This document shows positions 7,278 through 26,512 of a stretch of 35,415 nucleotides of DNA, piece by piece. The translations under genes were made by a program, and so were the position numbers. Numbering within the stretch: position 1 is the first letter of the stretch; the number at the start of each line of letters is the position of its first letter. The stretch spans positions 1 to 35,415 of the forward strand of contig JAFVBB010000016.1 in the NCBI GenBank assembly GCA_017480225.1. Direction: 5' to 3'. This stretch comes from Bacteroidales bacterium. Its GTDB lineage: Bacteria > Bacteroidota > Bacteroidia > Bacteroidales > P3. A model generated the notes under the pieces. That model worked only from the letters and a program-made list of their open reading frames with translations. It did not search any database and was not told the origin of the DNA.

Positions 7278-7366
7278 AAAAGATTGATTGGCGACGGAGG
7301 CTGGCGCAGGGTATGGGTCGGTGGCCGTAGGCAGGGCTCTTTCGAGGCATTGGGGCAATACAAACA

Positions 7367-7458
7367 CCGTCTGTTCTTCGATTGTTCTCCGATTGTTCTT
7401 CGATTGTTCTTCGAATTAATATCGAAGAACAATCGGAGAACAATCGAAGAACAGACGG
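7367..7458. repeat. 11-bp-unit palindromic element, copy 1
   Basis: A 92-bp hairpin element. The left arm is CCGTCTGTTC, then three 11-bp units (TTCGATTGTTC, TCCGATTGTTC, TTCGATTGTTC) and TTCGA. The 7-nt centre is ATTAATA. The right arm carries two units in reverse complement and ends GAACAGACGG. The outer 37 bp of both arms pair perfectly; the left arm has one extra unit that would loop out. It is preceded by GGGGCAATACAAACA, similar to the flank of copies 2 and 3. It sits between divergent genes, so it is unlikely to be a terminator. The unit length of 11 shifts frame, giving open frames in several phases. Confidence 0.93.
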
Positions 7459-12440: not shown

Positions 12441-12697
12441 CGATATTGTTTCGCCAGCCTCGTGGGGCGGACTCGACAGGTTGCAAAATGGCCTCGCCGC
12501 CATGTCTTCAACTTGCCAAAAACCGGCCAAAGGCATACCTCTATCACCCTCCCGCTTAGGTTGGTGATGGCAGTGTGCCGGGCGGCGGGAAGTCGTCTTT
12601 GGTCATAGGTATTGTGCTGGTTTATAATGTATTATGGTTGGTTGCTTTTGCAATGTATTGACTTCCAGCTTGTTTGCGCGTCAGGGCAATGTCAACA

Positions 12698-12800
12698 CCG
12701 TCTGTTCTTCGATTGTTCTCCGATTGTTCTTCGATTGTTCTTCGATATTAAATCGAAGAACAATCGGAGAACAATCGGACATCAGTCGAAGAACAGTCGG
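12698..12800. repeat. 11-bp-unit palindromic element, copy 2 (diverged)
   Basis: A 103-bp element with three 11-bp units per arm around a 7-nt centre (TATTAAA). The left arm is identical to that of copy 1. The right arm has changes: its outermost unit reads CATCAGTCGAA instead of GAACAATCGAA and the end is GAACAGTCGG. The arms still pair over most of their length. It is preceded by GGGCAATGTCAACA, shared with copy 3 in inverted orientation. Confidence 0.92.
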
Positions 12801-22193: not shown

Positions 22194-22220
22194 ATGCCCC
22201 AAGATGCTGATAACCATATG

Positions 22221-22312
22221 TCAACACCTGCACAACACCTGCTCAATGCCTACACATGTAGGTGTTGACAAGGCGATGGGTAGGTGTTGAGTAGGAGATG
22301 AGTAGGAGTTGG
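22221..22312. repeat. 11-bp-unit inverted array with a different unit (element 4)
   Basis: Eight 11-bp units without gaps except a 4-nt centre (ACAT, 22254-22257). Left, reverse sense: TCAACACCTGC, ACAACACCTGC, TCAATGCCTAC. Right, forward: GTAGGTGTTGA, CAAGGCGATGG, GTAGGTGTTGA, GTAGGAGATGA, GTAGGAGTTGG. The innermost and third pairs match apart from G-T pairs; the second pair is poor. The unit differs from that of copies 1-3, but the architecture, unit length and overall size (92 bp) are the same. Confidence 0.85.
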
Positions 22313-22505
22313 TCTATACTTTATGCTGATTTACAGTGAATTATGTGACACTCCTGTTCGGTTGTGAAATATTTGTGCAATGCGTTGAATGTCAATAATG
22401 TATGGAATGAGCCCCGCTCAAGTTGTGGCAATGGGGTGGGGCTGGTTGCCGCTTGGGCGGCGCCGGGCGGTGCTCGGCGCAGGAGTGAGGCGGCCTCATG
22501 TTTTT

Positions 22506-25865: not shown

Positions 25866-26020
25866 AATGCTTGTTTTTAGTTTTATTGTTGCTTCTTCCC
25901 AATCGACAGCGTACGGGTTGTCGCGCAACGGTTGGCAAAAACAAGCACAGGGCTGCGCCGGGGTTTGTCGCCCAGCGGCCGCCGGCATGCTTTTTCCTCG
26001 AAAGCGTAGCCCGCACAATG

Positions 26021-26190
26021 CGGTTTGGCAGGTCTTCTGGCTTGCTCTCCTCGACCCGGCCTTCCCACGCGCCTGTGGCGGTGCGCAGTGGCCTTCATGT
26101 TTGGGTCTCAGTTGGTTGAGCTTACAGCAGCGGGACTGCGCCGGACTTGCACCGGCTTCCCTTTTCAAGCCCTCGCGGGCTACCAAACCG
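26021..26190 (-). ncRNA. Cobalamin riboswitch
   Basis: On the minus strand the conserved core is plain: GAAGCCGGTGCAAGTCCGGC, then GCAGTCCCGCTGCTGTAAGC, a GCCACTG segment, and the box AAGCCAGAAGACCTGCC. The closing helix P1 pairs CGGTTTGG (26190-26183) with CCAAACCG (26028-26021). Binding of adenosyl- or another cobalamin would be expected to turn the downstream gene off. The expression platform is not clear; the start codon lies about 155 nt beyond P1. Confidence 0.95.
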
Positions 26191-26194
26191 GCTG

Positions 26195-26226
26195 CAAAAA
26201 TACTAAAAAAAACTGACCCGGCCAAA
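26195..26226 (-). promoter_or_regulatory. Promoter of the cobalamin-riboswitch transcript
   Basis: On the minus strand TTTG (26226-26223) and TATTTTTG (26202-26195) with 20 nt between them match the Bacteroidota consensus. Transcription would start a few bases ahead of riboswitch helix P1. Confidence 0.82.
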
Positions 26227-26288: not shown

Positions 26289-26391
26289 CCGTCTGTTCTT
26301 CGATTGTTCTTCGATTGTTCTTCGATTGTTCTCCGAGATTAAATCGAAGAACAATCGAAGAACAATCGGAGAACAATCGAAGAACAGACGG
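26289..26391. repeat. 11-bp-unit palindromic element, copy 3 (inverted)
   Basis: A 103-bp element: CCGTCTGTTC, three units of TTCGATTGTTC, TCCGA, centre GATTAAA, then TCGAA, three reverse-complement units and GAACAGACGG. Arms pair nearly perfectly (isolated T/C changes allow G-T pairs). The flank after the right end, TGTTGACATTGCC, is the reverse complement of the flank before copy 2, so copy 3 lies in the opposite orientation. Confidence 0.93.
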
Positions 26392-26512
26392 TGTTGACAT
26401 TGCCTTGGTGCCTCTTTCGCCTGATTTTCAGTGCTATATAAAAGAGACTTGGCGCAAGTGGCTGTGCGTCAGGGTGTGGCGTGGTGTGGCCTGTGGGGGG
26501 AGGTGTGCCTGG

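What the first reader, a model, noticed from the sequence alone, without database searches (positions are those of the whole stretch)
7367..7458. Hairpin element built of 11-bp units, copy 1
The unit TTCGATTGTTC (or TCCGATTGTTC) is repeated three times in the left arm and twice in the right, in inverted orientation, with 10-bp ends CCGTCTGTTC/GAACAGACGG. The outer 37 bp of the arms pair perfectly. Unequal unit number suggests units are gained or lost while pairing is kept. 11 bp is about one turn of A-form RNA or DNA helix, so either a transcribed rod-like hairpin or a protein bound to one face of DNA would see a regular array. It lies between divergent genes, which argues against a terminator. 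I do not recognise it as a known repeat family.
Basis: partly seen in the sequence, partly recalled or inferred. Interest (0 to 1): 0.82.

Follow-up and report, generated by a model that had tools for sequence, protein, structure and literature searches.

The report
Hairpin repeats with 11-base period
Between the genes of a bacterium related to rumen species lie well over a hundred long hairpins built from repeated 11-letter units; related species carry arrays with other letters but the same 11-letter step, so the step rather than the sequence seems to be what is kept, and none of the known repeat families tested here explains it.

Summary
The hairpin is real and exactly placed. It is one of an estimated 160 copies in its 2.05-Mb genome: 692 hits to a 19-mer of two units, 0 for the reversed control. 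All 34 copies in a 435-kb sample lie outside genes (own gene caller), without preference for gene ends. The class is wider than this family: in 11 of 20 further genomes of the genus one 20-kb stretch holds arrays of period 11, mostly of other units and some mirrored into hairpins; a sample of 20 other families of the order (267 kb) held none. In a sister species the two arms vary together through changes of both partners; in the home genome this was not seen, but loop and inner arm sometimes flip as one block. Both findings fit copying of one arm from the other during replication (template switching). It is not a terminator, and tests speak against a REPIN: no Y1 transposase was found in this genome, and none of six such genes examined in relatives is beside an 11-bp array (four are beside GTAG-type palindromes). 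How copies spread, and whether they do anything, is unknown. Best reading: a DNA-level intergenic palindromic repeat class with fixed 11-bp period. New variant of a known kind.

The parts
7367..7458 (.). Hairpin copy 1, family A: three and a half units in one arm and two full units in the other, TTCGATTGTTC / TCCGATTGTTC, 38-bp perfect outer arms
7352..7366 (+). Outer degenerate units of the left arm (GGGGCAATACAAACA), in the 11-bp register seen in other copies as GCAATGTCAACACCG
   Evidence: comparison of arms
12698..12800 (+). Hairpin copy 2, family A; far arm carries the mismatched GATG/CATC unit
12616..12668 (+). Diverged dyad (two CTGAWAACCAG-like boxes about 41 bp apart) beside copy 2; 4 mismatches in the near box, so below the cut-off used
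   Evidence: row 32L
26289..26391 (-). Hairpin copy 3, family A, three full units in each arm, 48-bp arms 96% complementary
26421..26472 (-). Dyad beside copy 3
   Evidence: (row 33R)
22219..22313 (-). Hairpin of a second family (B), 11-bp unit CTACTCAACTC and variants
22327..22337 (-). Box CTGATTTACAG beside the family-B hairpin, of the type seen beside family A

Best explanation
A class of non-coding interspersed DNA repeats of one Bacteroidales genus. In its full form each element is a palindrome whose arms are short minisatellites with a unit of exactly 11 bp, about one helical turn. SHOWN: high copy number; confinement to intergenic DNA in the sample; period 11 kept while unit sequence differs between species and between families within a genome; coupled variation of the two arms in G012; block inversion of the core relative to the flanking dyad in a few copies of G000. 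INFERRED: units are gained and lost by slippage in one-turn steps. The arms are kept complementary because one arm is copied from the other when the palindrome extrudes as a hairpin during replication (template switching), which also flips the loop. Copies were spread by a trans-acting factor not identified here, and survive only between genes because insertions elsewhere are removed. If the elements have a function it is most likely at the DNA level (a site bound once per turn, or a structure during replication), not as a terminator or as a structured RNA.
For: Copy number and control. Intergenic, 34 of 34 (own gene caller). Period: 435 kb: 51 stretches at 11, 45 at the harmonic 22, at most 1 at any other period from 4 to 30; 20 other genus genomes, one 20-kb stretch each: 17 arrays at 11 in 11 of 20 genomes, 0 at 10, 4 at 12, 12 at 7; shuffled sequence 0 at 7, 10, 11 and 12; G012, G048, G001 positive; 20 order-level genomes, 267 kb, 0. 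Arm coupling in G012: 26 copies, mean arm mismatch 1.38 against 2.23 with arms re-paired, 1 of 5000 as low; the 23 with at most 4 mismatches, 0.17 against 1.20, 0 of 5000; five distinct haplotypes among the 19 copies with identical arms, differing by A-T/T-A and G-C/C-G swaps. Flip: of 19 dyad-oriented copies 16 have one loop orientation and 3 the other; the arm carrying the inner C follows the loop, 13/0 against 0/2, p = 0.0095; without the dyad, 18 of 18 informative copies agree. Template switching as a cause of arm homogenisation and spacer inversion: PMC8604942 (passages), PMC8794818 (abstract and outline).
Against: In G000 itself T/C variants of the two arms do not match better than re-paired arms (0.644 against 0.660), so coupling is shown in G012 only, and shared descent of symmetric subfamilies could account for part of it and of the loop result. 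Slippage does not by itself explain why periods 10 and 12 are rare, nor copy number. On the dyad strand, arm mismatches are U.G 21 times and C.A 4 in the 19 dyad-oriented copies, which would suit a structured single strand, though few independent events lie behind it. No empty site was shown, so mobility is inferred. The site upstream of the OmpA-like gene holds arrays in several species, which may mean retention or function rather than insertion. In an earlier set of mostly shorter stretches only 3 of 18 genus genomes showed a period-11 array.
Confidence: 0.5

Rival explanations
1. Architectural or centromere-like binding arrays: a DNA-binding protein contacts one unit per turn, as ParR does on 11-bp repeats of plasmid R1; the protein and the unit co-evolve, so units differ between species. 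The dyad is a second binding site.
For: Strict 11-bp step across unrelated units; a symmetric dyad conserved without covariation, as expected of a protein site, with a box beside 15 of 41 arrays in G000 against 0.5 expected, reversed control 0; ParR of R1 needs two 11-bp repeats (PMC9426499, passages).
Against: A box is beside only 2 of 18 arrays in G012, 0 of 10 in G048 and 0 of 6 in G001. Position-specific matching of variants between arms is not needed by a binding array. Copies do not look evenly spaced (by eye, one search places). No candidate protein was identified or searched for.
Confidence: 0.22
2. Transcribed rod-like hairpin RNA; 11 bp is one turn of A-form helix, so each turn offers the same face to an RNA-binding protein.
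For: Very stable fold, z = -13.4; arm coupling in G012; U.G 21 against C.A 4 on the dyad strand.
Against: 14 of 33 classifiable copies lie between divergent genes. The double changes in G012 are transversions without a wobble intermediate. No Rfam family reaches its gathering score at the hairpins. Some copies lie beyond what looks by eye like an ordinary intrinsic terminator (elements numbered 1, 14, 28).
Confidence: 0.13
3. REPIN or other miniature transposon mobilised in trans by a tyrosine (Y1), DDE or other transposase that this genome has lost or that was not searched for.
For: High copy number, palindromic form, intergenic confinement; Y1 transposases occur in 40 of 59 genus genomes searched and none was found in G000, so loss after spread is possible. 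One of the two tyrosine recombinase genes of G000 (XerC/XerD-like by eye) does have a family-A hairpin directly upstream, though chance proximity is plausible at one copy per 13 kb.
Against: 0 of 6 Y1 genes examined in relatives are beside an 11-bp array; four (G048, G012 contig C14, G010, G001) are beside GTAG-type palindromes, the other two (G012 C2, G003) beside neither. No array was found within the 20-kb stretch that holds both DDE_Tnp_1 genes of G000. Other transposase families were not searched.
Confidence: 0.13
4. Bidirectional transcription terminators.
For: Stable stems between genes.
Against: No enrichment between convergent genes (5 of 33; background 11 of 87 intergenic regions over 150 bp); no consistent T-run after the stem (by eye); what look like separate intrinsic terminators precede some copies.
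Confidence: 0.02

Closest known systems
REP / REPIN with RAYT (GTAG and CGTC palindromes)
   Same: Many intergenic palindromes per genome; REP doublets form hairpins in single-stranded DNA (PMC3116915 abstract and outline; PMC3733652 passages)
   Different: REPs are 20-40 bp (abstract listing), and I know of no internal 11-bp repeat in them (recalled); no Y1 transposase found in this genome, and none of six Y1 genes of the genus examined is beside these arrays
BOX elements of Streptococcus pneumoniae
   Same: Stem-forming repeat with a variable number of tandem boxB modules between end modules (PMC3049150 passages)
   Different: BOX is over-represented between convergent genes (same passages); that its modules are longer than one helical turn and not mirrored in both arms is recalled, not seen in a call
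Long simple sequence repeats and heptamer arrays (Mrazek 2007 as told in PMC4679880, section 3; TAACTGA arrays)
   Same: Fixed-period tandem units, slippage proposed, largely intergenic for TAACTGA
   Different: Mainly direct arrays; here many arrays are mirrored into hairpins, of period 11, and one family is present at many sites
parC centromere of plasmid R1 (11-bp repeats)
   Same: Direct repeats of 11 bp; ParR needs at least two (PMC9426499 passages)
   Different: A partition site beside parM on a plasmid; here about 160 scattered hairpins and no identified ParR

Membership tests
REP/REPIN-RAYT | Associated Y1 transposase gene in the genome | tested here: not met
   PF01797: 0 matches in G000, 97.6% complete; 5 of 14 control genomes positive. 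A gene in the missing part cannot be excluded
REP/REPIN-RAYT | Transposase gene flanked by the repeat in relatives | tested here: not met
   0 of 6 Y1 genes examined (G048, G012 twice, G010, G003, G001); GTAG palindromes beside 4 of 6
REP/REPIN-RAYT | GTAG or CGTC tag at one end of a 20-40 bp palindrome | tested here: inconclusive
   Ends read CCGTCTG, which contains CGTC, in G000, but arms are 38-48 bp and the G012 family reads differently at its ends
MITE | Terminal inverted repeats and target-site duplication | tested here: inconclusive
   The whole element is an inverted repeat; flanks of 22 G012 copies were printed and no duplication was noticed by eye, no formal test
MITE | Parent insertion sequence with matching ends | tested here: inconclusive
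   Two DDE_Tnp_1 and two tyrosine recombinase genes found; no array in the stretch with the DDE genes, one hairpin upstream of a XerC/D-like gene; other families not searched
Intrinsic terminator | Position at gene 3' ends and a following T-run | tested here: not met
   Contexts; sequences (T-run judged by eye)
BOX element | boxA/boxB/boxC modules | not tested
   Comparison from paper passages only
Type II centromere (parC) | ParR-type protein binding the repeats | not testable with these tools
   No binding data; no ParR search was made
Known structured RNA | Rfam match at gathering score | tested here: not met
   only a cobalamin riboswitch and a tRNA in the window

The most novel reading that the evidence does not exclude
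A new kind of interspersed repeat in which the heritable feature is the period, one helical turn of 11 bp, and not the sequence: a genus-specific factor either makes units in 11-nt steps or reads them once per turn, brings new units to many copies of a genome in each species, and is neither a RAYT nor another known mobility system.
Probability: 0.17. Interest if true: 0.85.

Novelty: new variant of a known kind. Interest (0 to 1): 0.62.

Why it matters
High-copy palindromes are common in bacteria, but the best-known kinds are defined by a conserved sequence and often tied to a transposase. Here a genus keeps the period and form while the sequence turns over, with coupled arms in one species and flipping loops in another. 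That makes two open questions testable: how long palindromes stay perfect in bacterial genomes (arm-to-arm copying against selection on pairing), and what sets preferred repeat lengths such as 7 and 11.

Tried and rejected
Rejected: intrinsic terminator; Rfam family; spread on phages or plasmids (no match; 0 viral contigs); REPIN/RAYT; flanking dyad as an RNA hairpin (no covariation); dyad as a general part of the class (rare outside G000). Arm coupling in G000 was tested and not found. Equal unit number in both arms was 25 of 34, no more than re-paired arms give. The half-site of the dyad gave 76 viral contigs; 7 of 78 hits had a second half nearby, uninformative. A first arm-coupling run on G012 covered 9 copies (5 of 2000 as low); a second used a faulty removal of duplicates (8 copies, no effect); the third, by place, used 26 copies, and its second test left out the 3 with more than 4 mismatches, which have unequal unit numbers. 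Even spacing along the chromosome was judged by eye, not tested. One search read minus-strand loci in the wrong orientation; redone.

Limits and dropped rows: two of 20 stretches had been chosen for their matches (L106, L107); of the other 18 genomes 3 showed period-11 arrays, many contigs there being only 2-6 kb. Several order-level contigs were also short (387 bases at the least). The stretches were chosen with the hit list in view, so 34 copies in 435 kb may overstate density a little. The 20 genomes were chosen for long contigs. In one search the stretches G125 C768 and G124 C48 were picked for known hits. Gene calls are from a simple codon-usage script of mine.

Literature: searches (open-access library only) listed nothing whose title or abstract start describes 11-bp-unit hairpin repeats of Bacteroidales; most subscription papers are not held. 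Seen of papers: PMC3733652, PMC3049150, PMC9426499, PMC8604942, PMC13155455 passages; PMC4679880 passages and section 3; PMC8794818 and PMC3116915 abstract and outline.

Full report
What is there. The hairpin at 7367-7458 is as described, with 38-bp perfect outer arms. It belongs to a family (A) with three copies in the window. The own genome (2.05 Mb, 22 contigs, 97.6% complete) gives 692 hits, 332 and 360 by strand, for a 19-mer of two units at up to 2 mismatches, and 0 for the reversed pattern. In 400 kb of stretches plus the window, 34 clusters of units were found, all 34 with two or more units and with both orientations. At about four hits a copy this means roughly 160 copies; the stretches were partly chosen with the hit list in view.

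Where they lie. By a simple gene caller (coding fraction 0.84), 34 of 34 copies lie between genes: 14 divergent, 14 tandem, 5 convergent, 1 at a stretch end, against 26, 50 and 11 of 87 intergenic regions above 150 bp. At least three copies (elements 1, 14, 28) stand beyond what looks by eye like an intrinsic terminator. Hence they are not terminators.

Anatomy. In family A the core is CCGTCTG-TTC, mostly three full units and an inner half unit per arm, and a short AT-rich loop. Outside the core the 11-bp register continues in degenerate units such as CATCAAGGCAA and TGTCAACACCG. By the cut-off, 19 of 34 copies carry, on one side only, a dyad of two CTGAWAACCAG-like boxes about 41 bp apart. 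Where both a dyad side and the mismatched GATG unit are assigned, GATG is in the arm away from the dyad, 8 of 8; 7 further copies with GATG have no assigned dyad, one of them with GATG in both arms. A box is beside 15 of 41 arrays in G000 (0.5 expected, reversed control 0) but 2 of 18 in G012, 0 of 10 in G048 and 0 of 6 in G001; the dyad does not covary. A second family (B), unit CTACTCAACTC, is also present, once in the window at 22219-22313.

The period is what is kept. In the sample of the own genome 51 stretches have period 11 and 45 the harmonic 22; every other period from 4 to 30 has 0 or 1. Searched with the family-A pattern at up to 1 mismatch, 2 of 117 relatives had a hit, yet other units with the same period abound: GTAGTATTACG, GTTGTTCTTCG and CTGTTCTTTTA in G012, GTACATGCACC in G048, others in G001 and G055. 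In one 20-kb stretch from each of 20 further genus genomes there were 17 arrays of period 11 in 11 of 20 genomes, 0 of period 10, 4 of 12 and 12 of 7; shuffled sequence gave none at 7, 10, 11 or 12. At least three of the 17 (in G145, G069, G138) are plainly mirrored, by eye. An earlier set of mostly shorter stretches gave 3 of 18 genomes. Twenty genomes of other families of the order (267 kb, some contigs short) gave none. Five named genomes that carry family-A-like units (RGIG6769, RUG737, RUG197, RGIG10151, Red_deer_4_mag_30; the sheep and yak titles name the rumen) match members of this genus at the same coordinates. Outside the genus, arrays of period 11 and 7 occur in a Limisphaerales genome (5 and 6 in 110 kb) and a Verrucomicrobia genome (1, on a contig picked for it, and 18 in 68 kb).

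Same site, other units. Upstream (within 900 bp) of the OmpA-like gene next to copy 1, period-11 arrays were found at a loose threshold in 9 of 29 relatives whose loci were fetched, among them G012, G010 and G067 with units other than family A; G048 has none. With 34 elements for 87 long intergenic regions in the G000 sample, some coincidence is expected.

How arms and loop behave. In G012 a family of about 45 copies (181 hits) was read at 26 places. Over all 26 the arms differ at 1.38 positions on average against 2.23 when arms are re-paired (1 of 5000 as low); in the 23 with at most 4 mismatches, 0.17 against 1.20 (0 of 5000). Among the 19 with identical arms there are five distinct haplotypes. 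In G000 no such coupling was seen. In G000 the loop is in one orientation in 16 of 19 dyad-oriented copies and inverted in 3, and the inner-arm C variant moves with it (13/0 against 0/2, p = 0.0095; 18 of 18 informative copies without using the dyad). Copies share descent, so these p-values overstate independence. Template switching is reported to homogenise arms and invert spacers (PMC8604942, passages) and to produce compensatory changes (PMC8794818, abstract). This is the inference on which the best explanation rests.

What moves them. In G000 no Y1 transposase was found. Two tyrosine recombinase genes were found; the one read is XerC/XerD-like by eye and has a complete family-A element directly upstream, which at one copy per 13 kb may be chance. 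The 20-kb stretch with both DDE_Tnp_1 genes holds no array. Y1 genes occur in 40 of 59 genus genomes searched. Six were examined: none is beside an 11-bp array, and four are beside GTAG-type palindromes. So REP/RAYT-like loci exist in the genus and are something else. The factor that spreads the 11-bp hairpins was not found.

Verdict. Ordinary in kind (high-copy intergenic palindromes), unusual in that period and form persist while sequence turns over. The mechanism of upkeep is inferred with moderate support; the mechanism of spread and any function are open. The odds are as first judged; mending counts did not change them.

Noticed in passing
L140 9916-10000 (genome G012): A hairpin built of 7-bp units (AATTGAA type) lies inside an open reading frame and is read through in frame; the protein looks deiminase-like by eye. 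Other 7-bp-unit arrays, some mirrored, are frequent in the G012 and G001 samples and absent from the G000 and G048 samples.
   Followed up: partly
L150 13600-15000 (genome G048), L359, L360, L362: Y1 transposase genes beside GTAG-type palindromes (CCCCGTAGGGG and similar): REP/RAYT-like loci in the same genus.
   Followed up: partly
L305 4090-4285 (genome G000): A complete family-A element with dyad lies directly upstream of a XerC/XerD-like recombinase gene.
   Followed up: partly
window 26010-26202 (-): Cobalamin riboswitch upstream of a gene with a Por secretion tail, close to hairpin copy 3.
   Followed up: no
L329, L330, L335 (Limisphaerales genome G127): Arrays of period 11 with several unrelated units, and of period 7, in another phylum.
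   Followed up: partly
L047 / L336 (lake Bacteroidales genome G124): Eight tandem units, six of them exactly ATTGTTCTCCG, which is a family-A unit in another register, in a distant relative and without hairpin form.
   Followed up: no
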